From an uncultured Oscillospiraceae bacterium (GTDB lineage: Bacteria; Bacillota; Clostridia; Oscillospirales; Oscillospiraceae), in contig CAKTLD010000016.1 in the NCBI GenBank assembly GCA_934572445.1, forward strand, positions 1 to 25,183: a stretch of 25,183 nucleotides of DNA, in the 5' to 3' direction. A model generated the notes under the pieces. That model made no database searches, had not been told where the DNA came from, and was given only the letters and a program-made list of their open reading frames with translations. The position numbers were made by a program, and so were the translations under genes. Below are positions 9,147-24,368 of this stretch, one piece after another; the first letter of the stretch is position 1, and every line of letters begins with the position of its first letter.

Positions 9147-9202
9147 TGGCGCAGCGGGAGGGATTCGAACCCTCGTGAGGTTTCCCTCAAACTGATTTCG
9201 AG
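9147..9202 (-). pseudogene. 3' half of host tRNA-Ser(CGA), split by the element
   Basis: On the minus strand: anticodon loop and 3' anticodon stem (CTCGAAATCAG), long serine-type variable arm (GAGG-GAAA-CCTC), T-arm GAGGG-TTCGAAT-CCCTC, acceptor strand CCGCTGC, discriminator G and encoded CCA. The matching 5' acceptor strand GCAGCGG is 15 kb away at 24362-24368. The 5' half here is replaced by element sequence. Joined to that half it gives a flawless 89-nt tRNA-Ser. Confidence 0.92.
9193..9202. other. attL: attL core of the 15-kb element
   Basis: The decamer TGATTTCGAG, identical to 24326-24335 at the other tRNA half. It covers the anticodon loop and the 3' anticodon stem. Bases on either side differ between the two sites, so identity is exactly 10 bp. 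Confidence 0.85.
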
Positions 9203-9316
9203 GGAAATAATCAGAGAAAAGAGCTTTTGTAGCTTCTCAAATGGTGATGTAAAATGTCCGATACAGCTATATTTTTATCGGTCTTTATGTGACTTTGCTT
9301 TTCACAGGAGCAAAGT

Positions 9317-9344
9317 ATTATAGCGCCGCTAAATTCTCTGTCAC
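9317..9344 (-). promoter_or_regulatory. Outward-facing promoter at the left end
   Basis: Minus-strand -35 GTGACA (9339-9344), 16-bp spacer, consensus -10 TATAAT (9317-9322). It points out of the element through the tRNA 3' half towards the NSS transporter. The -35 lies inside the 22-bp repeat 9337-9358, so a protein on that repeat would be expected to block it. Confidence 0.6.
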
Positions 9345-9358
9345 CATTTTGGCACCAT
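9337..9358. repeat. 22-bp direct repeat, left copy (putative arm site)
   Basis: Identical to 24045-24066 in the same orientation. It contains two CACCAT hexamers 11 bp apart (GTCACCATTTTGGCACCAT). It lies about 135 bp inside the left core. Arm-type sites bound by the integrase N-terminal domain are the favoured reading; ends of a nested element are the alternative. Confidence 0.75.
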
Positions 9359-9389
9359 AGGTATCACTCGTTTTCTAGTTCGGTTTAGT

Positions 9390-9421
9390 CCCCCTCAACA
9401 GTTTGATTGAGGGGGCTTTTT
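9390..9421 (+). terminator. Plus-strand terminator near the left end
   Basis: Perfect 9-bp stem CCCCCTCAA (9390-9398) with TTGAGGGGG (9407-9415), then C and five T. No plus-strand gene precedes it here. It would stop transcripts entering from the left flank or crossing the joined ends of the circular form, and it abuts the stop of the 53-aa gene. Confidence 0.8.
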
Positions 9422-9428
9422 AATGATA

Positions 9429-9590
9429 TCACTTTTGATGTTTTTTACGCCATGCCTCGCGTTCGGCTAACGTTTTGAATCCTTTCCAGCCATCGGATGC
9501 CTTGGGCTTAGACGTGCTGGATGCTGAAGTCTGGGTTGTGCTAAACGTAGTACCAACCTGTCGAATAAAATATTTCAGTCCATCTGCCAT
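9429..9590 (-). CDS. 53-aa basic small protein
   Basis: 53 codons, start MADGLKYFIRQVG, a Ser/Thr-rich linker (TSASSTSKPK), then a basic C-terminus WKGFKTLAEREAWRKKHQK. An AAAAGGAGAAG ribosome site precedes the ATG and the gene starts 27 bp after the stop of the 555-aa gene, so it is probably the last gene of a three-gene operon. No membrane segment and no recognised family. Confidence 0.6.
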   Translation of the reverse strand: MADGLKYFIRQVGTTFSTTQTSASSTSKPKASDGWKGFKTLAEREAWRKKHQK

Positions 9591-9617
9591 TAGAGTTTCT
9601 TCTCCTTTTATAGATAT

Positions 9618-11285
9618 TTATAGTAGCTTCCATAACAAACTATCTTGATACGAGTCTGGATGCTTTGTAAAGTACTCTTTGGGTAAGCCCCAGTTTCTCA
9701 ACTTTTGTTGACACCATGTTGATTTTGCAGCATTGCTTTCATATCCAAAAGTCCCCCTTTTCAGAGAGATACTCAGATAGTTAATTGCATCAGGATATTC
9801 CATGCGGACCGCCTTATCGAGAAATGCTCGTCCTTTTGAGATATCTTTGTATGTATTCCAATAGCCATTAAGCAAAACGGTTGCCATTCGAAAAATGCAC
9901 CCAGGGCTATTCAGTTTAACGCCTTGATTCAAAAATTCTTTTGCTTTCGAGTAGCAACTACATCTCTCTTTAATCTCCCATTCGGCAGCAATCGCATAGG
10001 CTACAGGGACACTTTTGGATAACATTAAAGACACAAGTTCTTCAGCTTTCGAAAATCGTTCCTCTGTGAAGAAGTAAATTGTTAGATACTCGGCTATTGG
10101 ATCAGGATTCATCCAAAAGTTACGAGCCCTTTTGGAAAATGGGTCTTGCTTTGCATCACAGTACAACTCCCAAATGTAACGAGAATGATACCTGTCATTC
10201 AAATCTGACAGAATATCATCCGCTTGAAACGGAGTTCCCTCTAGTACCGTCTTTATATCTTGAATGCTATTCGCGATGTCTTGCGCTGTTTTGATTGGTC
10301 GCCTCTGCACGTTATGTACTTGGTCAGACACAAAATCTAACCACCGGTCATGGAAAAATTGTTCTCGCCCTGTTACTTTTAAGATTTCATAGACATCTGC
10401 CGCTGGGAAATCGGGAATATTCAAAATTAGTACGTCATCCATCATACGAACTGAAAAAGGCACTATCATCAGCATGACTGACAGTGTACCACAATAATTT
10501 TGGTATAGCGCAGATTCGGACTCGATTTCCTTCGCAAGGTCTTGCGAATCGTATAATGCACGGACAGCATCGTCGTATGCCTCAGTTGCAATTTGAAGGT
10601 CGTCTACTGAAAAAGTAATTATATGTCGGAGATTGAGGTATTCTAATATGCCAATAGCGGTTGCACATACTGACTCATATAATGAATCCCGAAGAGAGCG
10701 TTGAACCTCATCGCTCGAAAGTAATTTTTGTACCTCCTTCTTCATAACGGCGTGATTGCCCTTTGCGAATAAACTATTTACGCTGTCTCGCAAGATACTT
10801 GCTCCCGCATTTAATAACTCAGCTTGAACCATGCCTGCGACTGCTCCCGCCATTCCGATGCCGCCACCGACCCAACGTTTTCCCGTATCATAAAGTAGTT
10901 TATTGTCCTCGGAATCCCCATACTCTTCAACAAGTTGTACGTACGGTTCAAGAAATGAACTCATAAATGTATTTCCGAACGAAAAGAAAGGATGATCATA
11001 TAGCGTTGAAAAACCGATGTATTCTTTTTCGCTCATTCTGGTATCATAATTCTTATTTAAAAAAGACGCTCCAAGTTGAACCCCTTTTCGCATCCAACTA
11101 ATATAGAATTCCAGCATGGCATCGACTATACTATCAACATTATCAATTTTATTTGGATTAAATTTCTGATCAAACGCTTGGACACAGCTATATGCCAAGT
11201 GTCCAAAATTTTGCGTAAGTTTCCCGAGCTCATGGGACTTCGCAAGAAACTCGTCCTCATTTTCAAAATCAAACATTTCTAACAT
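9618..11285 (-). CDS. 555-aa protein of unknown function with Sel1-like repeats
   Basis: Not recognised as a known family. The N-terminal half is helical, with a Gly/Ala-rich hydrophobic segment near residues 138-165 (RWVGGGIGMAGAVAGMVQAE) that looks like a glycine zipper and could insert in or pack against a membrane. The C-terminal 150 residues resemble degenerate Sel1/TPR-type helical repeats (CIFRMATVLLNGYWNTYKD, then KGRAFLDKAVRMEYPDAINY), usually protein-protein scaffolds. ATG 11285 has AAGGTGG 7 nt upstream, 14 bp after the membrane-protein gene, so the two are one operon and probably one system. Codon use is AT-rich compared with the flanks. The position in element cargo suggests host-interaction or anti-phage function; that is inference. 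Confidence 0.85.
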   Translation of the reverse strand: MLEMFDFENEDEFLAKSHELGKLTQNFGHLAYSCVQAFDQKFNPNKIDNVDSIVDAMLEFYISWMRKGVQLGASFLNKNYDTRMSEKEYIGFSTLYDHPFFSFGNTFMSSFLEPYVQLVEEYGDSEDNKLLYDTGKRWVGGGIGMAGAVAGMVQAELLNAGASILRDSVNSLFAKGNHAVMKKEVQKLLSSDEVQRSLRDSLYESVCATAIGILEYLNLRHIITFSVDDLQIATEAYDDAVRALYDSQDLAKEIESESALYQNYCGTLSVMLMIVPFSVRMMDDVLILNIPDFPAADVYEILKVTGREQFFHDRWLDFVSDQVHNVQRRPIKTAQDIANSIQDIKTVLEGTPFQADDILSDLNDRYHSRYIWELYCDAKQDPFSKRARNFWMNPDPIAEYLTIYFFTEERFSKAEELVSLMLSKSVPVAYAIAAEWEIKERCSCYSKAKEFLNQGVKLNSPGCIFRMATVLLNGYWNTYKDISKGRAFLDKAVRMEYPDAINYLSISLKRGTFGYESNAAKSTWCQQKLRNWGLPKEYFTKHPDSYQDSLLWKLL

Positions 11286-11299
11286 GTTAATACCACCTT

Positions 11300-12103
11300 T
11301 TATTGGCTACACAATCTTGATTTCAGCTGTTCTGCGATAGCGGGAGGAATTTCACTGAGTTCACCTAATATTTGCTCTATGTCCTTCTTATCTGCAAGTG
11401 AACAAAAGTACAGCTCCTCTGAAAGACTGTCAGCAACATCCTCTGAAATATTAACTATATTTTTTATGAGGTATTCTTTAATCATCTTCTTCGCCTGATC
11501 TGCCGAAACGGTATCGGGCATTTTTAGCTCCGGCAATACACCGTCAAAATAGAGAGCGACTTCATTTCTTTTGGGCGGTGCGACAACAGGCTTTGTGCGC
11601 ATTTCCAAATCTGCACATTTGCTCCATGCTTTGATATACGCAAAAGCTACGAGAATCAAGAGCAAATATATATCAGCATTTGATTTATGATACAACTCTA
11701 ATACATATAATATTCCGCTTGTATTTTCAGAATCAGACAATACGGAAGGGATAAGCCACGCCCCAATGTAAAGAATCATAAGCGCAGAGAAGACGTATCC
11801 AAATATACTTACTAACACACTTTGAAATGTATCTTTTGAATACGCATAATCATCCTGACTATGCGACCCCAATTCTATAATGTGTTTAGTTCCTACTCGG
11901 AGAAGCAGGCCGACTGCAAGTATCAAAAATAATGTCTTTGCCGTACCATGGAACATTCTCATTTCAAAAAACACGACCGCAACTACAACGATATATGGCA
12001 AATGTAAAGGAACACATACTTTCGCTAGCACATAGCAAATGCCTTTAACCACAAAATAAAGCACTCCAAGTAGCAGAACTGAAACGATTAGTCCTATAAC
12101 CAT
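11300..12103 (-). CDS. Multi-span membrane protein of unknown function
   Basis: 267 residues with about five hydrophobic segments in the first 160 (roughly 3-25, 34-52, 55-70, 95-118, 142-160). A soluble C-terminal domain of about 100 residues follows, helical and acidic (DQAKKMIKEYLIKNIVNI, SEELYFCSLADKKDIEQILG). No transporter or enzyme signature is visible. AAGGAGATG precedes the ATG at 12103. It is the first gene of the operon with the 555-aa and 53-aa proteins, under a promoter that overlaps the divergent XRE gene's promoter. The membrane topology plus a partner with a hydrophobic hairpin suggests a membrane complex. Confidence 0.85.
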   Translation of the reverse strand: MVIGLIVSVLLLGVLYFVVKGICYVLAKVCVPLHLPYIVVVAVVFFEMRMFHGTAKTLFLILAVGLLLRVGTKHIIELGSHSQDDYAYSKDTFQSVLVSIFGYVFSALMILYIGAWLIPSVLSDSENTSGILYVLELYHKSNADIYLLLILVAFAYIKAWSKCADLEMRTKPVVAPPKRNEVALYFDGVLPELKMPDTVSADQAKKMIKEYLIKNIVNISEDVADSLSEELYFCSLADKKDIEQILGELSEIPPAIAEQLKSRLCSQ

Positions 12104-12148
12104 ACAGACATCTCCTTTTAAATATCGTTTTTAGTTATCTTATAACAT

Positions 12149-12178
12149 ATTTTATCACAACTCATCATCCTTTACAAT
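12149..12178. promoter_or_regulatory. Overlapping divergent promoters, cargo operon and XRE gene
   Basis: Minus strand: -35 TTGTAA (12172-12177), 17 bp, -10 TAAAAT (12149-12154), for the membrane-protein operon. Plus strand: a -10 TACAAT (12173-12178) for the XRE gene overlaps the minus -35. The XRE protein could thus control both directions. Confidence 0.5.
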
Positions 12179-12203
12179 AACGAAAAAAAGGTGGTGAAAC
12201 GTA

Positions 12204-12527
12204 ATGGAAAAGCAACAGCTTATTGAGATCGGCCAGCGTCTGCGGCAACGGCGGCAGGAACTGGGACTGACCCGCGAAAAAATGTCTGAACTTGCCGATA
12301 TCGGCACGGGCTATTACGGACAGTTGGAAGTTGGGACATCGCAGATGTCCATCGATACCCTCATTAAGCTGTCACAGTCCATGCACCTGCCGATGGAATA
12401 TATTATTTACGGTTCCGGTTATGATCCGGGAGATGCTTCCGGTGTGCAGGAATTGCTGTCACGCTGCACGGAGAGAGAATTGAAGCTCGCAGAGGATGTG
12501 CTGAAACTGTTTTTAATGAAGCAATAG
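12204..12527 (+). CDS. XRE-family regulator
   Basis: 107 residues. A Cro/CI-type helix-turn-helix covers about residues 7-63: IGQRLRQRRQELGLTREKMS, ELADIGTGYYGQLEVGTSQMS, then LIKLSQSMHLPMEYIIYG. A short acidic tail ending LKLFLMKQ probably dimerises. AAAGGTGGTG precedes the ATG. Transcribed away from the membrane-protein operon, with overlapping promoters, it is probably a repressor of that operon and of itself. Its GC is higher than that of the operon next to it. Confidence 0.9.
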   Translation: MEKQQLIEIGQRLRQRRQELGLTREKMSELADIGTGYYGQLEVGTSQMSIDTLIKLSQSMHLPMEYIIYGSGYDPGDASGVQELLSRCTERELKLAEDVLKLFLMKQ

Positions 12528-12592
12528 AGAGAAGAAAAGTTGTTCGTATTATATCGGGGCTTTTGCGCGAAGAATGTCGAAGACGGTCGATT

Positions 12593-12629
12593 TTTCAAAA
12601 AGAACTGCGACGAGAGAGTTCGTCGCAGT
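12593..12629 (-). terminator. Terminator of the 51-aa membrane peptide gene
   Basis: Stem ACTGCGACGA (12604-12613) with TCGTCGCAGT (12620-12629), followed on the minus strand by TTCTTTTT. It starts 5 bp past the stop. Confidence 0.8.
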
Positions 12630-12633
12630 CTTG

Positions 12634-12789
12634 CTATATCCCAGTAGACGCAAAGAGGAGGGCCCATACGACGACATAAGCGGCGAGTTTTTTCTTCCCG
12701 CTGAAGAACATTACGTCTGCGCCAATCAGCTTTGCGTATAACCAATAGAGAATGTTGGCGATAACGATAGAGAGTATTGCCGAGATCAT
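12634..12789 (-). CDS. 51-aa two-span membrane peptide
   Basis: 51 codons: hydrophobic MISAILSIVIANILYWLYAK, a short polar turn with SGKKK, then hydrophobic AAYVVVWALLFAST. AAAGGAG precedes the ATG at 12789 and a strong terminator follows the stop, so it is a complete transcription unit. It is divergent from the XRE gene at 12915. Peptides of this type include toxins, holin-like proteins and small regulators; no family is recognised. Confidence 0.6.
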   Translation of the reverse strand: MISAILSIVIANILYWLYAKLIGADVMFFSGKKKLAAYVVVWALLFASTGI

Positions 12790-12840
12790 GTTAGGTGCTC
12801 CTTTCTTGATTTGGTTCTACCTGCATAGTAACAAAATTGA

Positions 12841-12884
12841 AGCACAAAAAGGTTAGCTGGCAGCTAACCTTTTTGTGCTATAAT
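12841..12884 (+). promoter_or_regulatory. 39-bp perfect palindromic operator overlapping a promoter
   Basis: AGCACAAAAAGGTTAGCT (12841-12858) and its exact reverse complement (12862-12879) flank GGC. The -10 hexamer TATAAT (12879-12884) begins on the last base of the palindrome, so the dyad covers the -35 region. It is a strong candidate autorepressor site for the XRE gene downstream. Confidence 0.8.
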
Positions 12885-12914
12885 AAGAGTAATATGTGGG
12901 CAGAGGTGAGATCG

Positions 12915-13334: not shown

Positions 13335-13336
13335 GA

Positions 13337-13369
13337 AAGGCCGCTGGACGATGATCCAGCGGCCTTTTC
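13337..13369. terminator. Bidirectional terminator between XRE and kinase genes
   Basis: 12-bp stem AAGGCCGCTGGA (13337-13348) with TCCAGCGGCCTT (13355-13366), A-rich on the left and TT on the right. It serves both convergent genes. Confidence 0.85.
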
Positions 13370-13374
13370 AGTTA

Positions 13375-14904
13375 TTAAGAGTTAAGAGCAGCGTTCCACT
13401 CTTCTAAACTTAAGTTTCCTTCTACAGCAAAAAGATACTTTTCATAGTCCACTTCGTCATACGGCGTGACACCAGTGGCGGAATTGTACCCATAGGTGTT
13501 AAAGCCGTGGTACGGATTGCGCAGGAGCTCCGATTCCAGGTATCCATCTGAAGTCAATTTGGTGTTGCCGCCGCCCCAAATTCGCCCGCGATAAGCTGCT
13601 ATATTCTCGGAGTTGGTATAAGAATAAACGGCGGATACAGATTCGGCTGATAAGTCACCTACTGATAATACGATTTCCTTTCCATCGTTCCCTTCGGGAT
13701 TTAGATCCACACAGGTCAGCTGAACGTAGAGCTCGTCGGGGAGTTCTGTGATACCGGATAAAGGATTTGCGGTGAGAATAGAGGCCGTGCGCCCATCAGG
13801 CAGCGCCTCGGATAGCGTTACGGGGAGCACTTCGCCAGAAATGATTTCGTTTTCAAAAAGAGTATCTTGCGTAACGGAAGTGAGATAGTCTGCAAGCGGT
13901 ACTTCTGCGGCGGCAAAACTTAGAAGCTCTTTTCCGTAGAAGGCTCCGTCTGCATTTTTGCTGCCGGAGATGACCTCGCACTGAATAGTGCCGGAATCAG
14001 CAGCGTACAATCGGACAAGTTCTTTTTCACGGTTGCCGTCCAAATCGACACGCATGGTCAGATCCTGCCCGGTTGTTCTTAACTTTCCTGCATTTGCAAT
14101 CAGATAATCCTCTGTGGCGGCGTAAAACAACAAGGCCTCATCAGGATAACGGGCCTCGGTGATCTCGGCCTGATTGCTGTGATACCACCATGCAAGGATG
14201 CTTGTACTCAAAAGCACTACGATAGAGATGATCCAAGGCAGGCAGAGTTGAAGTGTCCGTGTCTTTAATGAAAAAAGTAATGACTTTGCCGTGGCGTAGC
14301 GATGCTTGGGCGCAAATTCAGTGCACTTACGGAGAATATGTCGATAGGGGCGCTGATCAGCTCGCTTTCCCAAGAGCTGTTTCATCGTGACTCCTGTGGC
14401 ATAAATGTCAGCACGGGCATCTGTTTGAGCAAAGCCGTATTGTTCAGGCGGTGCATAGCCCTTGGTCCCCAATAGACGAGTATCACTGCCGCCGGTGTTT
14501 TTCTCTTCACGGGCAGCATCAAAGTCGATGAGACGGATATGTCCATTGGGTGCCAATAAAAGATTGGAAGGCTTGATGTCGCGGTGAATGATCCCGTGCT
14601 GGTGGAGAAATACCAATACTTCGCAGAGTTCTTCCATGAGAACTATGACCTGTTTTTCCGGCAGGGTGATTTCCGCCAAATTTGCTCCATCAATAAATTC
14701 TTCTATCAATACAACGCCAGTCCTGGTTTCCTCAACATGAAAAATCTTGGGGAGGTAAGGATGCGAGAGAGCTTGAAGCTGTGCATAAATAGGGTGCGGG
14801 CCTTGCAGCTCCTTGCGGATATAGCGAGTACCGGTATCCGAATCAATGACCAGCGTTACGGTGCTTTTCTCTGTGCGTTGAAGGTTTTTGACTTCTGCAA
14901 GCAT
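13375..14904 (-). CDS. Membrane-anchored Ser/Thr protein kinase
   Basis: 509 residues. The cytoplasmic kinase domain (1-210) has an invariant-type Lys (YIRKEL, Lys31), the catalytic loop HRDIKPSN (107-114), a metal site DFD (127-129) in place of the usual DFG, and the P+1 region GTKGYAPPEQYG. The glycine-rich loop is not evident and the helix-C Glu is not obvious, so nucleotide binding may be atypical. One membrane helix follows (219-240, CLPWIISIVVLLSTSILAWW), then a 270-residue outer domain with Ca-loop-like motifs (VDLDGNREKELV, DLNPEGNDGKEIV). ATG 14904 follows GAGGTGAG; an extended -10 TGTTACAAT (14927-14935) is the likely promoter. It is probably a sensor kinase in the element's regulatory block. 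Confidence 0.9.
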   Translation of the reverse strand: MLAEVKNLQRTEKSTVTLVIDSDTGTRYIRKELQGPHPIYAQLQALSHPYLPKIFHVEETRTGVVLIEEFIDGANLAEITLPEKQVIVLMEELCEVLVFLHQHGIIHRDIKPSNLLLAPNGHIRLIDFDAAREEKNTGGSDTRLLGTKGYAPPEQYGFAQTDARADIYATGVTMKQLLGKRADQRPYRHILRKCTEFAPKHRYATAKSLLFSLKTRTLQLCLPWIISIVVLLSTSILAWWYHSNQAEITEARYPDEALLFYAATEDYLIANAGKLRTTGQDLTMRVDLDGNREKELVRLYAADSGTIQCEVISGSKNADGAFYGKELLSFAAAEVPLADYLTSVTQDTLFENEIISGEVLPVTLSEALPDGRTASILTANPLSGITELPDELYVQLTCVDLNPEGNDGKEIVLSVGDLSAESVSAVYSYTNSENIAAYRGRIWGGGNTKLTSDGYLESELLRNPYHGFNTYGYNSATGVTPYDEVDYEKYLFAVEGNLSLEEWNAALNS

Positions 14905-15024
14905 AGCGATCTCACCTCTTGTGGCCATTGTAACACATTTCGTGATGCTATGGCACATCTTTTTCGTTTAACCTCGTTCTGCCTTGCAGATGTGCAATAC
15001 TTCTGATGGCAGACAAATTATAGG

Positions 15025-15825: not shown

Positions 15826-16194
15826 TTACAGGTACGGCAGGACGAAGATATCGCCGTTGGCCTTGATGAACCGCTCCGGCATCGCAAAGCGCTCCATGCA
15901 GGTCTGCGCCTGTTCATCGGTCAGTCCCTCAAAGCGGTCGCTGTTAGCAGGAGCCGCGCAGAGGAAGAAAGTCCCCGCCACGATGTCGTAGATAGCTCCA
16001 GTGCTGTCTCTCAGCGCACGGTTCGGCGGCAGGTTCAGCAGCTTTCCCTCATCGTTGCAGATCAGGGCGACCGGTTCCTCAAATGGGTAGACCGCCTGAA
16101 TGTTTCCGCCGACGATCTGCTGCATGGAGGCAAGGCCGCTGTCGATGTTCTGCACGACCGGTTTCTTCTCAGGTTCCACAATAACAACTTGCAT
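15826..16194 (-). CDS. DUF3846-domain protein
   Basis: 122 residues matching the DUF3846 pattern: MQVVIVEPEKKPVV, a central GGNIQAVYPFEEPVALICNDEGK and AGTFFLCAAP. The family is common on phages, plasmids and integrative elements of Firmicutes; its function is unknown. An AAGGGGGGTAG ribosome site precedes the ATG at 16194. It is the last gene of the amidoligase operon, 12 bp after the gene before it. Confidence 0.85.
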   Translation of the reverse strand: MQVVIVEPEKKPVVQNIDSGLASMQQIVGGNIQAVYPFEEPVALICNDEGKLLNLPPNRALRDSTGAIYDIVAGTFFLCAAPANSDRFEGLTDEQAQTCMERFAMPERFIKANGDIFVLPYL

Positions 16195-16206: not shown

Positions 16207-16482
16207 TTACGCAATGACAAAACGCCGTATAGTGGTGCTGCGGCTGAACTGATTAAACAGATCTGCGTGCGTCAGCTTGAAGGCAGCGCTGTCGAAGCGG
16301 TTTGTGATAATAGTTTCCCATGTGATCAGATAGTCCTTTCCGGACAGCACATCCGTGTTCTTTGCCAGCATTTCTGCCTTCAGGGAATCTTCAATGGCCG
16401 CGATGGAGGACTTCACCTCGGCTTCCATATCTCGCAGCTCCTTCAACTCTTTGACTTTCGCATCGATCTCGTAAATACTCAT
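16207..16482 (-). CDS. Phage-type 91-aa coiled-coil protein
   Basis: 91 residues. The N-terminal half is a charged helix (YEIDAKVKELKELRDMEAEV); the C-terminal half holds a compact domain ending FSRSTTIRRFVIA, a tail I associate with small phage and plasmid proteins found beside recombination and DUF3846 genes. It starts on the last base of the amidotransferase stop (TGATG), so translation is coupled. No biochemical role is known to me. Confidence 0.75.
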   Translation of the reverse strand: MSIYEIDAKVKELKELRDMEAEVKSSIAAIEDSLKAEMLAKNTDVLSGKDYLITWETIITNRFDSAAFKLTHADLFNQFSRSTTIRRFVIA

Positions 16483-17414
16483 CAGTAGATCATCCTTTCA
16501 TACAGTAATTCTTCAATTTCATCGGTAGAGAAGCCCACGTCCAGCAGCTCATCAATAGAGCTTGGCTCGTAGCCGTAGTAGGCGGCAACGCCTTTCAGCG
16601 TGTCCAGATATTCCTGTTCGGCCCTGTGCTGCTGCGGGACGGCCTTCCTCTGCACGGGATACAGCGAAAAGCTGCTCCATGGGCAAAGCAGGTTCGCCGC
16701 GTCGAAAGAGGATCTTTCCATCTGCCCAGTGGGGCGGAGCTTCAGAATATCTCCACAGTTCAGCTCGACACGCTCCGGCTTGCCAACGGGCAGATGCAGC
16801 CGTTTCAGCGCGCGGTTCAAAATAGCCTCGGTGGACGCATACAGGTACAGGCCACAGTGCGGGTAGTAATAGAGACACAGCGGATTATCGCCCTTCACAA
16901 AGTACAGATTTTCGCGCTGGTCCAGCACGGTGAATGTGAAAGAGCCCTCGACCGCTTCCGCCATGTATTTAAGGCAGGAAAAGTCGAGGGCGTTTTTCTG
17001 TTCAATGAGCTGAACGGCCACATAGCTGTCCGTCTCGATTTTCGTTTTCGGCAAGCGCTTGGTGCGGCGAAGAATGCCGTCGTTCCAGAGAACGCCGTTG
17101 TGTGCAAGGGCGAACGGTTTATTTTCCGCGTAGCCGAGGAATGGGTGATTGTTCCGATTCTTCCGCGCATCGCCCTGCGTGGTCATACGGGTATGGCCCA
17201 TAATGACCCTGCTGTCTGCCGGAATACGGAACCTCATACGGTGCGCCTCTACGGGACGCTTGTAGATGCTTAAATGCCGGTGAGAGCAGTACGCGATGCC
17301 GGTGGCATCTGTGCCGCGCTCTTCACATTCCGTCGCCAATATGGAGAGGATGCGACTTTTCTCCTTGGCACTAAATTGGTTCCGGCTGTCAATCAGACCG
17401 AATAAGCAGCACAT
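16482..17414 (-). CDS. Class II glutamine amidotransferase-like (Ntn hydrolase)
   Basis: 310 residues. It begins MCCLFGL: removal of Met would expose Cys2 as the N-terminal nucleophile. Family features follow in order: RGTDATGIAY, the HTRMTTQGD loop near residue 74, NNHPFLG, and AHNGVLWND with the oxyanion Asn-Gly. This domain releases ammonia from glutamine in GlmS, PurF and AsnB; here it is free-standing, with a C-terminal extension of unknown role. The ATG lies 1 nt after the amidoligase stop, behind GGAGGT. Tight coupling to an amidoligase fits known amidoligase-amidotransferase pairs on mobile elements, supplying nitrogen or trimming amide bonds. Confidence 0.88.
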   Translation of the reverse strand: MCCLFGLIDSRNQFSAKEKSRILSILATECEERGTDATGIAYCSHRHLSIYKRPVEAHRMRFRIPADSRVIMGHTRMTTQGDARKNRNNHPFLGYAENKPFALAHNGVLWNDGILRRTKRLPKTKIETDSYVAVQLIEQKNALDFSCLKYMAEAVEGSFTFTVLDQRENLYFVKGDNPLCLYYYPHCGLYLYASTEAILNRALKRLHLPVGKPERVELNCGDILKLRPTGQMERSSFDAANLLCPWSSFSLYPVQRKAVPQQHRAEQEYLDTLKGVAAYYGYEPSSIDELLDVGFSTDEIEELLYERMIY

Positions 17415-17415: not shown

Positions 17416-18528
17416 TCAGACCTCCGCCTCGCTTTCTACCGGCTCGTTCACATACAAGCGACGCTCCTTCAAGTACTGCACCAACTCTGGCTGTGTGCAG
17501 CCGGAGACAAAGGTCGTCCAAGACATCGCTTTCAACTCCTCGTCGGACATGAAAAGCGCCACATCACAGATCCGGTCAAGGAGCTGTAATGTGGCGATGA
17601 GCGTGTTGTATTTGAGCGTCCCACGGAAGATGCGAAACTCAATGGTGTTCTTGTTGGTGAGGTTGACGCTGGTATAGCGGCCGGCGTGAGCGCTCTTTTT
17701 AGCATGGTCCAAAAGCTCCTTCGGCTGATCCTTGTAGCCATAGCGGGTAGCCCACTGATCGAGCTGATGCTGCGTTCTTCGGCTGAACTTCAAGAGCTCC
17801 TCCCAGTTCTTTTCAAAGAAATAAAGAATGCGGGCAATCACGGCGTCCTGCTGTGCTTCCGTTTCACCGAAGGCATTGCGGTTGACGTGAACATGGAGTC
17901 CGCAAGTGCCCGCCTGATGGCTTTTGTACCCCATCTGCACGGCCTTCCGCAAGATGGCTGCCCACGGCATCTCCGACTGATGATAGGCGAGCGTCATGGG
18001 GTGCGTCACCATTTCGAAGCCGTCATCCAGAGAGCCGTCATGCTTGCAGTAGAGGTTTTCCAAGCCATTGCCGTTGGCAATAGACATGACTTCGGCGGCG
18101 TTGTCATCGTCCTCACCGGCACCGTCCACTTCCAGCTCTACGCCGAAGTAGCGATCGCCGTCCCCACGGAACAGCGGCTCAGGCTTGTAGTAATAATCCT
18201 GAATCGGCTTGCGGGAAGTGCGGCTCGTGTAGCAGTCATAACAGAACGGATACTCGTTGCCGTCACTCTCACAGGCGTAATAGGTCTGGCTGATGCGGAT
18301 GATATCACCGCAGCTGTGACAGTTTGTGTAGTGACGGTCGTAGCAGTCCTGACAGAGCGGCGTGGATTCATCTCCGGCGTTGTCATCCCGCCAGATGCGC
18401 TCACCGCAGTGAGAGCAGAGCATTGTTGTTTCCTCGGCACAGTTCTCGCATAAAGGGTTCTCGTTCATCCAGGTAGGGGTGGTCAAAATCATTTCTCCGC
18501 AGTGGCGGCAGGTGTAAGGTTCAGTCAT
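17416..18528 (-). CDS. Zinc-ribbon amidoligase-family protein
   Basis: 370 residues. The first about 100 hold repeated Cys pairs: CRHC (7-10), CENC (27-30), CSHC (38-41), CQDC (59-62), CHSC (70-73) and CYDC (96-99), zinc ribbons likely to bind nucleic acid or protein. The rest matches the amidoligase fold, related to glutamine synthetase and carboxylate-amine ligases: YFGVELEVDG (127-136), CKHDGSLDDGFEMVTHP (161-177) with acidic metal ligands, CGLHVHVNR (209-217) and NTIEFRIFRGTL. Such enzymes join amines to carboxylates with ATP. ATG 18528 follows AAAGGAG. The substrate is unknown; a protein side chain, peptide or cell-wall target are options. Confidence 0.88.
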   Translation of the reverse strand: MTEPYTCRHCGEMILTTPTWMNENPLCENCAEETTMLCSHCGERIWRDDNAGDESTPLCQDCYDRHYTNCHSCGDIIRISQTYYACESDGNEYPFCYDCYTSRTSRKPIQDYYYKPEPLFRGDGDRYFGVELEVDGAGEDDDNAAEVMSIANGNGLENLYCKHDGSLDDGFEMVTHPMTLAYHQSEMPWAAILRKAVQMGYKSHQAGTCGLHVHVNRNAFGETEAQQDAVIARILYFFEKNWEELLKFSRRTQHQLDQWATRYGYKDQPKELLDHAKKSAHAGRYTSVNLTNKNTIEFRIFRGTLKYNTLIATLQLLDRICDVALFMSDEELKAMSWTTFVSGCTQPELVQYLKERRLYVNEPVESEAEV

Positions 18529-18622
18529 CGTTTTCTTTCTCCTTTGTAAAATAGTCGATCGCTGCACAGAGCAGCGCGGCGGCAGCGGCCAGCATAATTT
18601 CAATGATGTTGTTGGTACTCAA
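18521..18622 (-). CDS. 33-aa hydrophobic micro-ORF before amidoligase
   Basis: Starts with TTG (18622), AAGGA about 10 nt upstream. The product MSTNNIIEIMLAAAAALLCA then IDYFTKEKENDD has one short hydrophobic stretch. It overlaps the amidoligase start by 8 bp (ATGACTGA), suggesting coupling. The TTG start and small size leave real doubt. Confidence 0.4.
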   Translation of the reverse strand: MSTNNIIEIMLAAAAALLCAAIDYFTKEKENDD

Positions 18623-18670
18623 GTTCTGATTATCCTTGGTGATCCTCTCCCTTCCTGTCCCTCGTGCCCA

Positions 18671-18760: not shown

Positions 18761-18843
18761 AATCTCCTTTCGCATTTTTCTTGTGTTTTTCGCTGATTTG
18801 CAGCTTGCAGCGCAGAAAATCCATCATTTTCTCTGCAAAATCG

Positions 18844-18894
18844 AAAAAGAGCCAGCGCCCGTGATCGTCGAGGATCTTCGGGCACTGGCTCTTT
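18844..18894. terminator. Bidirectional hairpin with T-tracts
   Basis: Arms GAGCCAGCGCCCG (18849-18861) and CGGGCACTGGCTC (18879-18891) pair at 12 of 13 positions. Five A lie on the left and TTT-CTCTT on the right, so it can stop transcription in either direction and would insulate the amidoligase operon. Confidence 0.7.
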
Positions 18895-19004
18895 CTCTTA
18901 CTAATAATATACGGTTGAGAAGTGAGAAATAACGCTAAATGGGACGAAAGGAGACAACAAGGATATAAGGCTTTATGCCAATTACAACACAGGAGGTTTT
19001 TACG

Positions 19005-20379: not shown

Positions 20380-20729
20380 GCCAGCTTTCCTCCTATTCTT
20401 ACACTTCGTTTTGAAATGCGGACTTATAATTTTTTTCCATTTATTTTATAAAGGGTGCGATAGTAAATACCCTTTATTTTTTCGTATATGGGGCTGTTTA
20501 TACTTTCACCATCTGTCCAGGAAACTTTTTTTAGCTTGCTACGGACACGTTCTAAAATCGAAGTGTTCTCAACACCATCATTTTTTTATGCTAATATAGG
20601 CCCATCTCCGGAGAACATGTACCTCGAAAAACTATTTCTCGCAAGTGGGCTAGTAGTCCACGCCCTGTATAAGTATCAACCTCAAGTGTGTTTTCTCTAT
20701 AAGAAGACCACGCCGTCAAAGGAGCCTAT
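20380..20729. other. AT-rich intergenic region before the helicase
   Basis: 350 bp with no convincing gene; an ORF at 20488-20733 lacks a ribosome site. It holds the 386-aa gene's leader, an inverted repeat ATAAAGGGT (20448-20456) with ACCCTTTAT (20469-20477) flanked by A/T tracts, and the helicase leader. An origin for the helicase is possible, by position and AT content only. Confidence 0.5.
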
Positions 20730-22196
20730 ATGAGTAAGCATAAGAAAAGCAGCCAGTATTATGGTGAAGTATTTGATGATCCATATTACGACAACATTCC
20801 TATGTCTGAGTATTCTCAGTTCGACTCAGACGAAGATGATATCCCGAGCATTGAAATTCCAACGATAGAAGTACCAACCAACAAGAAGGCGCGCGCCGTG
20901 CGAGCCTTCGCCAACCGGATCGCGTGTGACTGTCACGTAAAGATTTTGGAGCACAAGGAGCTCTTGTTCTATGATGAAGAGGCCTTCTGCTACACGCCGA
21001 TTTCCGCGCCGCTCGTCTTTGTGCAACAGGTATTAGGAACGAAGGCATGGAACCTGACACAGAAGGATATGGGCGACATTGTTCAGGCCTTGTTCAGCGA
21101 CCCTGATATTCAGATTGCTGCTGAGGATGTCAATGCTGATCCGTACCGTATCAACTGTCTGTCCGGAGATCTGGATTGGCAAACCGGACAGCTGCGAGAG
21201 CATTCCAATCAGAAGCTGTACACCTATTGTGTGGACGCTTACTATCTCATGCCAGATGATCGGCAGGGATGTCCTGTATTTGATCAGTTCTGCGCCACGT
21301 CTCTTCAGAATGATCCAGAAAAGCGGCAGCAGCTGTTAGAGGTGCTGGGCTATATTTTGAGTGATGCTGTGGGAGCTAAGAGTGCTTTTTTCCTGCACGG
21401 TGCACCTGACAGTGGAAAGTCCATCCTGCTCAACTTTGCCTCGGCTCTGCTGGACAAGCGCTTAATCGTCAACATCCAGCTCCATCAGCTTAACGAGAAG
21501 TTCAAAATTGCAGAGCTTCTCGGAAAGAAGATAAACGTAGCCGGTGAGATCAAGGGGAGTGCTCTGAGAGATATCTCCAGCTTCAAGTCTATCACCGGAG
21601 GGGACAGGATGTGTGGGGAATTCAAAGGTGAATCACCGTTTTATTTCACACCAACCTGTAAGCTCCTGTTTGCTGGGAACACCCTGCCGGAAACGAAAGA
21701 CACGGATATGACCCGCTCATTCGTCAACCGCCTCTGTGTAGTGATTTTCGGTGTCAGCATTCCGAAGGACAAGCAGGATAAGAACCTTCTGAATAAGCTG
21801 CTGGAAGAACGTGACGAGATATTTTCCCTTGCCATGGATGCGCTCGCGTCCCTGCATAAGAGAAACTACCAATTCACCGTACCGACCGATACGCAGCATT
21901 TCCTGAACGCATACGCTGAGACGCAAAGCTCTGTTCATGCGTTTTTGAAGGACTGGTGCGAGGTTGGAAATGGCGGCTATGTTTTCAGTCAGGATCTGTG
22001 CAGCGCCTACCGAGAGTACTGCGATCTGAATGGTTTTGATCCAATCAAGAATCAAGCTATGCAGAATATGATCGTGACTCTCCCGAATGTATCCAGAGAG
22101 CGCATTCGGGCCGAAGGGAAAAACCTTCGAGGCTTCCGCGGCCTGATTGTCCATAGAGAAAGCAGAAATGCTGGAACAATGGAACACAGCTCCTGA
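20730..22196 (+). CDS. D5/P4-type SF3 helicase (phage/plasmid primase family)
   Basis: 488 residues. The N-terminal 180 include a D5-N-like region (YRINCLSGDLDWQTGQLREH); no classical primase catalytic motif is obvious. The SF3 ATPase core follows: Walker A GAPDSGKS (224-231), acidic Walker B strand KINVAGEI (267-274) and motif C KLLFAGN (311-317). A C-terminal winged-helix-like domain (FLKDWCEVGNGGYVFSQDL) would bind DNA. Such proteins unwind the origin of P4-like satellites, phages and plasmids as hexamers. AAAGGAG lies 6 nt before the ATG. Together with integrase and no conjugation genes it indicates autonomous replication after excision. Confidence 0.92.
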   Translation: MSKHKKSSQYYGEVFDDPYYDNIPMSEYSQFDSDEDDIPSIEIPTIEVPTNKKARAVRAFANRIACDCHVKILEHKELLFYDEEAFCYTPISAPLVFVQQVLGTKAWNLTQKDMGDIVQALFSDPDIQIAAEDVNADPYRINCLSGDLDWQTGQLREHSNQKLYTYCVDAYYLMPDDRQGCPVFDQFCATSLQNDPEKRQQLLEVLGYILSDAVGAKSAFFLHGAPDSGKSILLNFASALLDKRLIVNIQLHQLNEKFKIAELLGKKINVAGEIKGSALRDISSFKSITGGDRMCGEFKGESPFYFTPTCKLLFAGNTLPETKDTDMTRSFVNRLCVVIFGVSIPKDKQDKNLLNKLLEERDEIFSLAMDALASLHKRNYQFTVPTDTQHFLNAYAETQSSVHAFLKDWCEVGNGGYVFSQDLCSAYREYCDLNGFDPIKNQAMQNMIVTLPNVSRERIRAEGKNLRGFRGLIVHRESRNAGTMEHSS

Positions 22197-22203
22197 TGCG
22201 TTG

Positions 22204-22265
22204 GCAGACAACACCTTTTGGCGTTCCACTCTTCATGGACCGTTCCGTGGCGTGGAATCGTCTGC
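22204..22265. repeat. Nested inverted repeat upstream of excisionase
   Basis: GCAGAC (22204-22209) pairs with GTCTGC (22260-22265), and TTCCAC (22224-22229) with GTGGAA (22252-22257); CGTTCC occurs twice (22222-22227, 22241-22246). It lies between helicase and excisionase. It could be the replication origin or a regulatory structure. Confidence 0.5.
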
Positions 22266-22268
22266 TTC

Positions 22269-22292
22269 ACCCGTATATTATTCTAATATAAT
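22269..22292 (+). promoter_or_regulatory. Putative xis-int promoter
   Basis: Consensus -10 TATAAT (22287-22292) in an AT-rich tract, 24 bp before the excisionase ATG; the -35 region (about 22264-22269) is weak, which suggests activator control. Confidence 0.45.
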
Positions 22293-22315
22293 AAAGTAAG
22301 GAAGGTCTTATTTCT

Positions 22316-22552
22316 ATGAATACCAAGAAGAACTCTATCACGATGCCCCTGCTGGTGACCGCTAAAGAGCTTGCCCGAATCAGCGGTATTGGTGAGAACA
22401 CCATTCGCCGCCTGATGGACGCGGGCGAACTGGAATATCTGCTGGTCGGCAACCACCGTCTTCTGAGACCAGCGGCTATTATCGACTATTATGATCGGCA
22501 TAAGACGCCCATCCGTTCGTACAGGAGTAATAAGCTCGGCGAGCCTGCGTAA
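22316..22552 (+). CDS. xis: Excisionase-like HTH protein
   Basis: 78 residues with the MerR/excisionase fold: MPLLVTAKELARISGIGENT, IRRLMDAGELEYLLVGNHRL, and a basic tail. AAGGAAGG precedes the ATG. It lies 162 bp upstream of int, in the same direction and close to the right end of the element, the usual place for the directionality factor. The 75-aa HTH protein at 19005 is a second candidate for that job. Confidence 0.85.
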   Translation: MNTKKNSITMPLLVTAKELARISGIGENTIRRLMDAGELEYLLVGNHRLLRPAAIIDYYDRHKTPIRSYRSNKLGEPA

Positions 22553-22714
22553 GCAATTTAATTAGATCACATCTGCGACTGGCAGCGTGATTTTTATGGG
22601 TGGGGCCGTGCGGCAGCTGACACGTCTTCCAAGAAGCGTGCAGTCCGTACGGCAACGCCCATGAAAATTGCGTTGACTGACGCAGCGCAAAGGAGAAAAG
22701 GAGATATATCTATT

Positions 22715-23944
22715 ATGGCAATTACAGAACGTACCGTCAAGAACAAACGCAACTCCACTGGCGTTTTGACCGGCAAGCCGGGAATCGTCTATGATGTCAA
22801 TGTCAAATATCGCTCCGAAGGGAAAGTAAAGGCCCATTCGAAAAAGGGCTTTGCAACCAAGAGCGAAGCCCAGCAATACGAGGCCATGATGAAAAATAAA
22901 CTGGCAAACCCGTCCTATGTACCGCCTACGGCATCACAGCGGCGGCTGACTGTGAGAGACTACCTCGCCGAGTGGTTAGAGCGTCATGGCACTGCTAATC
23001 TGCGCCCCAGCACCAAGGCAAGCTATCAGAGTCATATCCGCAATCATATCGATCCCTATATTGGGGACGTCTATCTGGGGCAGCTGACTCCTGCCATGCT
23101 GGATGATATGTTTGCAAAGCTGACTGAGAAGGGGCTATCGCCTTCCTCGGTAAAATATGCTCACCGTATCATTGGTGTGGCCCTTGAACACGCCAGAAAA
23201 TATCACTATATTGAGAGCAATCCGGCCCGAGATATCATCACCAGATTCGGCAAGCAGGGGAAAACTCCTGACCCGTACACGGTAGAAGAGATGCGTCAAC
23301 TGCTGGTTCGAACAGCTGGAACGGACTGGGAGTTGATCGTTGTCCTCGGCGGCCTGTACGGACTGCGACTGAGCGAAATATTTGGACTGCGCTGGAGAAA
23401 TGTTGACTTGGAAAATCAGACGTTCAACGTCATAGAGCAGCTTCCCTTTGCGCTTCCAGCAGGGACTACATACATTAAGGAGATGGCCCCTGTTAAATCC
23501 GGCGACCGAGCTCTGCCTATCACAGACTTAACGCTGCCATATTTTATTCGGCAAAAAGAGCGACAGGACGAGCAGAAACGGCTGTTGGCGATGTCTGGTG
23601 AAACCTACTACGAAAATGATCTGGTGCTTGCCAAACCGAACGGCATTCCCGAACGCAGGGAAAGAGTGTCTGCAAACTTCGGACAGTTTCTTCGCCATCA
23701 GGAACTTCGGCATATTCGCTTCCATGATCTTCGCCATTCGGCAGCAACCAATATGCATGAACTGACAGGAGATTTCTATACTGTAGGTCAGATCCTCGGT
23801 CACAGCTTAAAGGGAATCGGCATTCAGCTCGGAATCTCTAACAATATGGAGGCAGTTACTGCGCAGTATGTGGACGTTCGCCTCGACAGAAAGCGATTTG
23901 TCCTCGATACCTACCACAAGGAAACATTAGGCCATGAAGCATAA
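22715..23944 (+). CDS. int: Tyrosine-recombinase integrase
   Basis: 409 residues. The N-terminal arm-binding AP2-like domain (about 20-65: YDVNVKYRSEGKVKAHSKKG) is followed by a SAM-like core-binding domain (about 78-165) and the catalytic domain with the complete pentad: Arg218 in GLRLSE, Lys261 in PVKSGDR, His337 and Arg340 in HDLRHSAAT, His363 in ILGHS, and the nucleophile Tyr385 in TAQYVDVR. ATG 22715 follows an AAGGAG site 12 nt upstream; the longer frame to 22661 is not needed for any domain. It lies about 380 bp from the right core and catalyses insertion into the tRNA-Ser anticodon loop; this assignment rests on position. Confidence 0.95.
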   Translation: MAITERTVKNKRNSTGVLTGKPGIVYDVNVKYRSEGKVKAHSKKGFATKSEAQQYEAMMKNKLANPSYVPPTASQRRLTVRDYLAEWLERHGTANLRPSTKASYQSHIRNHIDPYIGDVYLGQLTPAMLDDMFAKLTEKGLSPSSVKYAHRIIGVALEHARKYHYIESNPARDIITRFGKQGKTPDPYTVEEMRQLLVRTAGTDWELIVVLGGLYGLRLSEIFGLRWRNVDLENQTFNVIEQLPFALPAGTTYIKEMAPVKSGDRALPITDLTLPYFIRQKERQDEQKRLLAMSGETYYENDLVLAKPNGIPERRERVSANFGQFLRHQELRHIRFHDLRHSAATNMHELTGDFYTVGQILGHSLKGIGIQLGISNNMEAVTAQYVDVRLDRKRFVLDTYHKETLGHEA

Positions 23945-23948
23945 GTAC

Positions 23949-23990
23949 AAGGACATCCTCTCCGAAATGCTGAGGATGTCCTTTCTATTT
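23949..23990 (+). terminator. Terminator after integrase
   Basis: Perfect 12-bp stem AAGGACATCCTC (23949-23960) with GAGGATGTCCTT (23972-23983), then T-rich TCTATTTT. It prevents int transcription from running into the tRNA region. Confidence 0.85.
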
Positions 23991-24044
23991 TGCTTGCAGC
24001 CTTGCACACGTTTATATCGCGTTATATAGGCTGCTGTGGAAGCA

Positions 24045-24066
24045 TCTGTCACCATTTTGGCACCAT
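24045..24066. repeat. 22-bp direct repeat, right copy (putative arm site)
   Basis: Identical to 9337-9358 over 22 bp; flanking bases differ. It lies about 260 bp inside the right core, between int and the carried tRNA. Confidence 0.75.
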
Positions 24067-24159
24067 TGCATTCAAAGCGCAAGCATAATATGCAGTGCCT
24101 GACAGCGAGAGGTTCTCCGCCTATGTGCTAATACAAGAAGCGCGCCAGATATGTAGTGC

Positions 24160-24194
24160 AAAAAAGAAACCTTGGAAACATTGAGTTTCCAAGG
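24160..24194 (-). terminator. Terminator of the carried tRNA-Ser
   Basis: Perfect 10-bp stem (24170-24179 with 24185-24194), 5-nt loop; minus-strand T-tract TTTCTTTTTT (24160-24169). It starts 5 bp past the tRNA CCA. Confidence 0.88.
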
Positions 24195-24199
24195 CTTTT

Positions 24200-24288
24200 T
24201 GGCGGAGCGGGTGGGATTCGAACCCACGTGCCCTTGCGGACAACTTGATTTCGAGTCAAGCTCGTTACGACCACTTCGATACCGCTCC
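24200..24288 (-). tRNA. Complete tRNA-Ser(CGA) carried by the element
   Basis: 89 nt. Acceptor GGAGCGG pairs with CCGCTCC, discriminator G and encoded CCA; anticodon arm CTTGA-CTCGAAA-TCAAG with CGA at 24251-24253; long variable arm GTCC-GCAA-GGGC; T-arm GTGGG-TTCGAAT-CCCAC. It lies between the two halves of the disrupted host tRNA, so it belongs to the insertion. It differs from the reconstructed host tRNA at 17 of 89 positions, mostly as compensated stem changes, yet has the same anticodon and length. Its own terminator follows. No promoter is evident in the 37 bp between it and the host 5' half. Confidence 0.96.
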
Positions 24289-24300
24289 ATACGATAAACT

Positions 24301-24318
24301 TATTCAGTTCTCTGAATA
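24301..24318. repeat. 7-bp hairpin between carried tRNA and host 5' half
   Basis: TATTCAG (24301-24307) and CTGAATA (24312-24318) around TTCT. It might help processing between the truncated tRNA leader and the intact tRNA, or bind integrase at the core. Confidence 0.6.
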
Positions 24319-24325
24319 TGATACA

Positions 24326-24335
24326 TGATTTCGAG
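24326..24335. other. attR: attR core of the 15-kb element
   Basis: TGATTTCGAG, identical to attL at 9193-9202. The same decamer also occurs in the carried tRNA (24246-24255). Confidence 0.85.
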
Positions 24336-24368
24336 TCAGCCCCGTTATGACCACTTCGATACCGCTGC
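24326..24368 (-). pseudogene. 5' half of host tRNA-Ser(CGA), split by the element
   Basis: Minus strand: acceptor GCAGCGG, D-arm TATCGAAGTGGTCATAACGG, 5' anticodon stem and loop GCTGACTCGAAATCA, then unrelated sequence. It completes the 3' half at 9147-9202: acceptor strands GCAGCGG/CCGCTGC and anticodon stem GCTGA/TCAGT pair across the 15-kb gap. Confidence 0.92.

What the first reader, a model, noticed from the sequence alone, without database searches (positions are those of the whole stretch)
9147..24368. Element splits a tRNA-Ser(CGA) in the anticodon loop and carries a complete substitute tRNA-Ser(CGA)
The two halves at 9147-9202 and 24326-24368 share only the decamer TGATTTCGAG. Joined, they form a flawless 89-nt tRNA-Ser with matched acceptor, anticodon, variable and T stems. 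Elements that use tRNA genes normally carry the distal tRNA part next to the core so the gene is rebuilt at one junction. Here neither junction rebuilds it. Instead a separate 89-nt tRNA-Ser with the same anticodon, differing at 17 positions, lies 37 bp inside the right end. That is a break-and-replace strategy, which might also make the host depend on the element for UCG decoding.
Basis: partly seen in the sequence, partly recalled or inferred. Interest (0 to 1): 0.93.

Follow-up and report, generated by a model that had tools for sequence, protein, structure and literature searches.

The report
Mobile element that swaps host tRNA
A 15-kilobase, apparently mobile DNA element has split a bacterium's serine-tRNA gene in two and carries a complete serine-tRNA of its own just behind the broken gene's predicted promoter, which it likely borrows to keep the host's decoding intact; the idea is known from some phages and conjugative elements, but in a relative of this bacterium the swap appears to have happened three times in a row at one gene.

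Summary
A 15.1-kb tyrosine-integrase element splits a tRNA-Ser(CGA) gene at the anticodon loop (10-bp core), rebuilds it at neither end, and carries a complete 89-nt tRNA-Ser(CGA) 37 bp inside the right end (17/89 differences). A sister species has one uninterrupted tRNA, 89/89 identical to the joined halves, beside the same right-flank gene. The layout recurs: 22 of 35 related genome loci with a complete tRNA-Ser show 5' half, linker, complete tRNA; anticodons match in all 22 and in the window. The borne tRNA lies between core and predicted arm sites, is followed by a predicted terminator, and shows no upstream promoter signal above shuffles, whereas the split gene keeps its promoter: predicted promoter capture. 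Ladders of two or three broken 5' halves before one intact tRNA point to repeated integration, apparently by two integrase families. The principle is published (tRNA-dependent lysogeny; some Pasteurellaceae ICEs), so this is a new variant, not a new kind. Host dependence for UCG decoding is untested; 15 of 18 genomes searched also hold tRNA-Ser(UGA). No transcript, excised circle or whole host genome was available.

The parts
24396..24424 (-). predicted promoter of the host tRNA gene (TTGCAA-17-CATAAT), left upstream of the split gene
   Evidence: CATAATA is shared with all six empty-site relatives and TTGCAA with five (the printed stretch of L112 starts after it)
24326..24368 (-). 5' half of host tRNA-Ser(CGA), ending in the 10-bp core
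   Evidence: completes the 3' half to an 89-mer identical to the intact tRNA of L104
24326..24335 (-). att core, right copy (CTCGAAATCA on the minus strand; anticodon loop)
24289..24325 (-). linker between core and borne tRNA; core start to tRNA start is 44-47 bp in 18 of 19 CGA rows
24200..24288 (-). complete element-borne tRNA-Ser(CGA), CCA encoded
24160..24199 (-). hairpin plus T-run directly after the borne tRNA, predicted intrinsic terminator
24045..24066 (+). 22-bp repeat TCTGTCACCATTTTGGCACCAT, right copy: predicted arm-type integrase site
9337..9358 (+). 22-bp repeat, left copy: predicted arm-type integrase site
22661..23944 (+). tyrosine integrase (Phage_integrase, SAM_3, Arm-DNA-bind_4); second possible start at residue 19
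22316..22552 (+). small excisionase/HTH-like protein (weak matches)
20730..22196 (+). primase/helicase-like protein (D5_N, DUF5906)
17416..18603 (-). amidoligase-like protein
16482..17414 (-). class-II glutamine amidotransferase-like protein
15826..16194 (-). DUF3846 protein
13375..14958 (-). Ser/Thr protein kinase domain protein
12204..12527 (+). HTH repressor-like regulator
9193..9202 (-). att core, left copy
9147..9202 (-). 3' half of host tRNA-Ser(CGA) with core, CCA encoded
24460..25062 (+). host flank gene (Peptidase C26 / gamma-glutamyl hydrolase type), next to the intact tRNA in sister species

Best explanation
The 15.1-kb integrase-bearing element interrupts the host's tRNA-Ser(CGA) gene at the anticodon loop, rebuilds it at neither end, and carries a complete tRNA-Ser(CGA) of its own 37 bp inside the promoter-side junction, where the host gene's promoter is predicted to transcribe it. 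Steps. (1) Integrase likely joins a 10-bp core in attP to the same core in the host gene (inferred from the junctions; crossover point not mapped). (2) The predicted host promoter and the 5' half stay upstream; the 3' half lies 15 kb away (shown). (3) The borne tRNA, followed by a predicted terminator, lies between the core and a predicted arm-type site, so it lands in the same orientation right behind the host promoter (position shown; transcription predicted). (4) RNase P would release the tRNA from a leader holding the dead 5' half (inferred). (5) The borne tRNA has a fresh anticodon loop and so re-arms the site: later elements, of this or another integrase family, likely enter it and leave ladders of broken 5' halves (ladders shown in relatives; the order of events inferred).
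For: Uninterrupted tRNA in G216 (L104), 89/89 to the joined halves, plus five further single-tRNA sites. Same layout in 22 of 35 genome loci with a complete tRNA-Ser plus the window (5' half above the best of 100 mononucleotide shuffles); anticodon of half and borne tRNA agree in 23 of 23 (19 CGA, 4 GGA). Core-to-tRNA distance 44-47 bp in 18 of the 19 CGA rows, 68 in L035. Host 5' halves of window, L059 and L062 identical (43/43) while L062's borne tRNA is 76/89 to the window's. Promoter score upstream of the outermost half found: mean 9.92, against 6.45 just upstream of the complete tRNA (22 rows from 39 candidates, p 0.002; 21 after removing a duplicate, p 0.0016); the latter is not above shuffles (p 0.98), the former is (p 0.0004). 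Partner 3' halves: L020 on the same contig; L019, L055 and L063 on other contigs of the same genome (L117, L119, L120). tRNA still on the promoter side when the integrase is at the other end: L027/L128 on one contig; L065/L122 on two contigs of one genome. Ladders: G036 three halves, L142 two; tandem array L121.
Against: A first promoter test on the 80 bp next to the inner half was inconclusive (23 rows, p 0.32). Of 36 rows with a complete tRNA-Ser (35 loci and the window), 13 show no recognisable half 24-75 bp upstream: nine look restored (L009, L017, L042, L052, L057, L061, L069, L071, L072; only L052 checked at both ends), L004 and L014 have a core at the usual distance but no half above shuffles, L013 is cut by its contig end, L029 is unclear. 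L003's 5' half does not pair in the anticodon stem with the 3' half on another contig (L126), nor fully does L027's with its own (L127). The left flank gene (7756-9087) is not beside a tRNA-Ser in L084-L099. No transcript, circle or window genome was seen.
Confidence: 0.82

Rival explanations
1. Ordinary restoring element: the complete tRNA is the rebuilt target gene of an earlier classic integration, and the half beside it is debris of a second event.
For: Some relatives look restored: complete tRNA directly behind a good promoter with no half (L042, L052), and tRNA 3' halves next to integrases exist.
Against: A rebuilt gene would have the host's 5' half, but the borne tRNA's 5' half differs from the host half here, and the whole tRNA is 89/89 identical to that of L013, in another genome record with a different 3' half. 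The 44-47 bp spacing and the linker motif recur in loci with different host tRNAs.
Confidence: 0.07
2. The host had two neighbouring tRNA-Ser genes and the element merely entered one.
For: The complete tRNA and the 5' half are only 37 bp apart.
Against: Six sister-species loci have one tRNA-Ser at this place; the borne tRNA follows the element, not the host.
Confidence: 0.03
3. The tRNA is cargo with its own promoter, as in actinophage tRNA-dependent lysogeny, and its place behind the host promoter is incidental.
For: A published case has a working promoter of its own (PMC10865867, read in part); the linker motif AAAACTGAATA is widespread in the linkers and unexplained.
Against: The region upstream of the complete tRNA scores no better than shuffles (p 0.98); the tRNA stays on the promoter side when the integrase is at the other end. 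Consensus scoring cannot exclude an unusual promoter.
Confidence: 0.12
4. Assembly artefact.
For: The window is a single record with no genome held.
Against: The same junction anatomy is in 22 other genome loci.
Confidence: 0.01

Closest known systems
tRNA-dependent lysogeny of actinobacteriophages (Fionnbharth, cluster L, Gaia and others; PMC10865867, parts 1-5 of 8 and passages read)
   Same: Tyrosine integrase, about 10-bp core in a host tRNA, no rebuilding at either junction, borne tRNA of the same isotype; related integrases differ between restoring and replacing.
   Different: Those are phages with the tRNA at varied places (Fionnbharth: opposite strand of gene 37, own promoter). Here the tRNA lies next to the core behind the host promoter, no virion genes were found in 13 ORFs scanned, and the tRNA is Ser(CGA) or Ser(GGA). 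Integration into the borne tRNA was only speculated there; ladders look like its footprint here.
Some Pasteurellaceae ICEs at tRNA-Leu (passages of PMC6028734)
   Same: Disrupted tRNA at both ends, 10-13 nt remnant core, intact tRNA copy at the ICE end; possibly the same promoter-side layout (not stated in the passages read).
   Different: Gammaproteobacterial conjugative elements and tRNA-Leu; no ladders in the passages read. [quoted passage not shown]
Sinorhizobium meliloti prophages and islands with replacement tRNAs (passages of PMC11476347); Lactobacillus prophage Lj965 (named in PMC10865867)
   Same: Inactivated tRNA gene replaced by an isoacceptor on the inserted element.
   Different: Other tRNAs and hosts; layout relative to the promoter not described in what I read. 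phiLM21-like prophages were reported not to do it (passages of PMC12429752).
Classic tRNA-targeting islands (Islander, PMC4383910, part 1 of 3 read)
   Same: Tyrosine integrase at a tRNA gene.
   Different: Those carry a tDNA fragment that restores the gene at one junction; not so here.

Membership tests
tRNA-dependent lysogeny | tyrosine integrase with attB in a tRNA gene | tested here: met
tRNA-dependent lysogeny | short core, no functional tRNA rebuilt at attL or attR | tested here: met
   10-bp core; ARAGORN finds no tRNA at either junction, only after joining
tRNA-dependent lysogeny | borne tRNA of the same isotype and anticodon | tested here: met
   23 of 23 rows
tRNA-dependent lysogeny | borne tRNA required for viable integration | not testable with these tools
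   needs deletion or integration-vector assays
tRNA-dependent lysogeny | carrier is a temperate phage | tested here: not met
   no virion gene in 13 element ORFs scanned with Pfam and/or PHROGs; one 78-aa HTH protein has a weak terminase-small match beside an excisionase match; not every ORF was scanned
tRNA-dependent lysogeny | borne tRNA has its own promoter (shown for Fionnbharth) | tested here: inconclusive
   consensus scoring only: upstream of the complete tRNA not above shuffles; an earlier comparison was undecided
Classic restoring tRNA island | element carries the distal tRNA part, gene rebuilt at one junction | tested here: not met
Pasteurellaceae-type ICE | split tRNA with intact copy at the element end | tested here: met
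Pasteurellaceae-type ICE | conjugation genes | tested here: not met
   none in the nine element ORFs scanned with Pfam; smaller ORFs not scanned with Pfam; the long-linker element in G161 does have a T4SS coupling protein

The most novel reading that the evidence does not exclude
In Clostridia the tRNA-Ser(CGA) gene is a self-renewing promoter trap: at least two distinct element families place a promoterless tRNA-terminator cassette, built into attP, behind the captured host promoter, and each borne tRNA becomes the next attB. Host tRNA genes are thus serially overwritten by mobile DNA, and even the 'host' tRNA split here (GCAGCGG type) was itself brought in by an earlier element, as in G087, where it follows a broken copy of the GGACAGG-type tRNA of its genus.
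Probability: 0.55. Interest if true: 0.76.

Novelty: new variant of a known kind. Interest (0 to 1): 0.62.

Why it matters
Replacing a broken tRNA has been described for some phages and some Pasteurellaceae ICEs. Here it is the commonest layout among the Ser-targeting loci found for a family of integrases in Clostridia, and a distinct conjugative element uses it at the same gene. Placing the tRNA next to the core behind the host promoter would remove the need for both a promoter and extended att homology, and would re-arm the site so that insertions can stack. Chromosomal tRNA genes, usually taken as vertically inherited, could thus be turned over by mobile DNA, and tools that look for a restored tRNA plus one fragment may misplace the ends of such elements.

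Tried and rejected
Tandem host tRNA genes: rejected by single-tRNA sites. Full left-right synteny of the empty site: not obtained; no tRNA-Ser lies within the fetched stretches (up to 1.5 kb each side) around the Na+-transporter gene in L084-L099, so the empty-site argument rests on the tRNA, its promoter and the right flank. In one search my C26 query was out of frame, so its zero hits mean nothing; it was redone in frame. Immediate-upstream promoter test: inconclusive, because in ladders the DNA next to the inner half is an older linker; I then tested upstream of the outermost half that a regular expression could chain. That test took CGA loci only; L007, L027, L074 and the four GGA loci were not given, 17 of 39 candidates gave no row, and in L141, L142 and L158 an outer or degenerate half was probably missed, which works against my reading. 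L003/L126 as a partner pair: dropped, anticodon stems do not match. Tree: 48 rows; 6 of 54 attempted were too short and loci not in my list were left out; it shows break-and-replace spread over the tree and one non-tRNA clade of 11, not a single origin. Paper searches with no hits; one search gave one useful paper. PADLOC gave kinase-domain and HTH-regulator matches only. No structure prediction was run.
Full report
OBSERVATION. ARAGORN reports a single tRNA in the window, tRNA-Ser(CGA) at 24200-24288 (-), which Rfam confirms. Joined with the core counted once they form an 89-nt tRNA-Ser(CGA) accepted by ARAGORN; it differs from the borne tRNA at 17 of 89 positions. Both halves and the borne tRNA point the same way (minus strand), so reading that strand one meets: predicted host promoter, 5' half, core, 37-bp linker, complete tRNA, predicted terminator, arm-like repeat, integrase (on the other strand), element body, arm-like repeat, core, 3' half. 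The inner element is 15,123 bp at 47.2% G+C against 58.8% in the flanks.

EMPTY SITE. No genome is held for the window. The left-flank transporter led to close relatives (49 of 250 family genomes with a match, six at 85-89% identity). The right-flank gene (24460-25062), searched in the 18 genomes of one such genus, matched in 10. Of the 13 loci fetched, seven have a tRNA-Ser(CGA) beside it: in L104 (genome G216) it is 89/89 identical to the joined window halves and in L105 84/89; L107, L109, L110, L111 and L112 carry a 91-nt type. L109 is set aside because that genome also has a 3' half on another contig (L138). None of the other six has a second tRNA-Ser in the fetched stretch. Upstream, CATAATA is shared with the window in all six, and TTGCAA in five (the printed stretch of L112 starts after it). 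The 3' flank differs between them and the left-flank gene lies elsewhere. G216 also has a second tRNA-Ser(CGA) on another contig in a long-linker context (L134).

FAMILY. A 19-row integrase alignment found 79 loci in a collection with one genome per species; 95 stretches encoded a relative and the best 80 were kept. ARAGORN finds a complete tRNA-Ser in 35 of the 79. In 22 of the 35, and in the window, the DNA outboard of the complete tRNA holds a tRNA-Ser 5' half scoring above all of 100 mononucleotide shuffles; anticodons agree in 23 of 23 (19 CGA, 4 GGA). The distance from core start to tRNA start is 44-47 bp in 18 of the 19 CGA rows (68 in L035) and 45-67 bp in the four GGA rows. L004 and L014 have a core at that distance but no half above shuffles; L013's contig ends 35 bp past the tRNA, but its left-end 3' half is of another type than its borne tRNA. 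Eight minus-strand loci (L009, L017, L042, L057, L061, L069, L071, L072) and L052 show a complete tRNA with no half, several behind strong promoters, and look restored; L029 is unclear. In another subset the 3' half lies on the integrase side (L023, L024, L027, L028, L043, L044, L052, L065). Where a far end could be read, L027/L128 (same contig) and L065/L122 (two contigs of one genome) again show 5' half, linker and complete tRNA, while L052/L124 looks restored. Break-and-replace rows are spread over the integrase tree of 48 rows; one clade of 11 has no tRNA target.

THE BORNE tRNA IS CARGO. The window's borne tRNA is 89/89 identical to that of L013 and 88/89 to that of L059, but 72/89 to the window's host tRNA. 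Window, L059 and L062 have identical 43-nt host halves although L062's borne tRNA matches the window's at only 76 of 89 positions. Partner 3' halves, matching by eye in acceptor and anticodon stems, were found for L020 (same contig) and for L019 (L117), L055 (L119) and L063 (L120) on other contigs. In 18 of 18 genomes with a resolved CGA locus (L007's genome was not searched) every intact match to a tRNA-Ser(CGA) pattern is element-borne: one copy in 16, two in G005, one plus a copy cut by the contig end in G272. The pattern misses variant T-loops and assemblies are partial. tRNA-Ser(UGA) is matched in 15 of 18 genomes, so UCG decoding may not hang on the borne tRNA alone. UCG is 26 of 115 serine codons in seven host genes of the window and 23 of 240 in 11 element genes.

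PROMOTER CAPTURE. A test on the 80 bp directly upstream of the inner half against the 80 bp upstream of the complete tRNA gave no difference (23 rows, p 0.32). Taking the outermost half instead, 22 rows from 39 candidates gave mean scores of 9.92 against 6.45 (p 0.002); after removing one locus present twice, 21 rows gave p 0.0016. The region upstream of the complete tRNA was not above shuffles (p 0.98), the outermost region was (p 0.0004). By eye a hairpin with T-rich 3' side follows the CCA in the rows printed; a fold was computed for the window only. The tRNA stays on the promoter side whichever end holds the integrase. Transcription itself is predicted, not seen. The linker motif AAAACTGAATA is unexplained.

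REPEATED REPLACEMENT. L142 has two 5' halves before the complete tRNA; L141 has one clear half and one degenerate one; G036 has three (spacings 79, 192 and 213 bp), mixing short and long linkers. L121 is a tandem array: U-arm, core, linker, complete tRNA. In 250 family genomes the short-linker signature occurs in 8 (a second D-arm is seen in six of them) and the long-linker one in 14 (11 of them); G036 is in both lists, and G001 has a long-linker match just upstream of L003's short-linker one. Reversed-pattern controls gave 0 and 1. In 391 genomes of the class the short signature occurs in 6. The long-linker element of G161 spans about 27 kb between complete tRNA and 3' half beside the same tRNA cluster, has a tyrosine integrase only 30% identical to the window's and a T4SS coupling protein, hence probably a conjugative element; that other long linkers belong to the same integrase family is inferred. 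In L006 a sequence like that element's end interrupts the borne tRNA. In G087 and G269 the GCAGCGG-type tRNA, the type split in the window, follows a 5' half ending in CGGCCCTGACTCGAAA; in G087 (L155) that half is readable as the GGACAGG type of its genus. I infer, without proof, that the 'host' tRNA of the window is a relic of an earlier replacement.

PRIOR ART. The principle is published. Guerrero-Bustamante and Hatfull (PMC10865867; parts 1-5 of 8 and passages read) describe tRNA-dependent lysogeny with about 10-bp cores and a required phage tRNA, shown for one phage to have its own promoter; they speculate about integration into the borne tRNA. Passages of PMC6028734 describe Pasteurellaceae ICEs with a disrupted tRNA-Leu at both ends and an intact copy at the ICE end, while passages of PMC4908127 describe restoring ones. 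Passages of PMC11476347 note tRNA substitution in S. meliloti; PMC12429752 (passages) reports none in another prophage group. In the listings of nine searches and in the papers I opened I found no account of promoter capture, ladders or Clostridia; the library holds open-licence PMC papers only. Hence: new variant of a known kind.

Noticed in passing
L132 6122-6210 to L133 13261; L151-L164: A second, probably conjugative element family with a roughly 160-bp linker uses the same break-and-replace trick at the same tRNA-Ser(CGA) gene.
   Followed up: partly
L047 11529-11617, L071 485-576: tRNA-Ser(GGA) genes whose body looks like the CGA isoacceptor, as if the anticodon changed with the target.
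   Followed up: no
window 13375-14958: Kinase-domain protein whose best PADLOC matches are PD-T4-6 defence kinases (domain-level only).
   Followed up: no
L002, L030-L034, L036, L045, L049, L050, L073: A clade of 11 related integrases that lacks a tRNA; the eight loci of it printed share ACTATTTTTT or a near match downstream of the integrase, suggesting a non-tRNA target.
   Followed up: no
L006 around 4993, L012 around 2923: Borne tRNAs interrupted at the anticodon loop, in L006 by DNA resembling the end of the conjugative family.
   Followed up: partly
window 24289-24325; linkers printed; L104 upstream of 1407: Recurrent linker motif AAAACTGAATA and a similar AACTGAATAT just before the intact tRNA of L104; could be a processing signal or an integrase site.
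   Followed up: no
window 7756-9147: The gene next to the 3' half lies elsewhere in sister genomes, so the downstream side of this tRNA is variable between species.
   Followed up: partly
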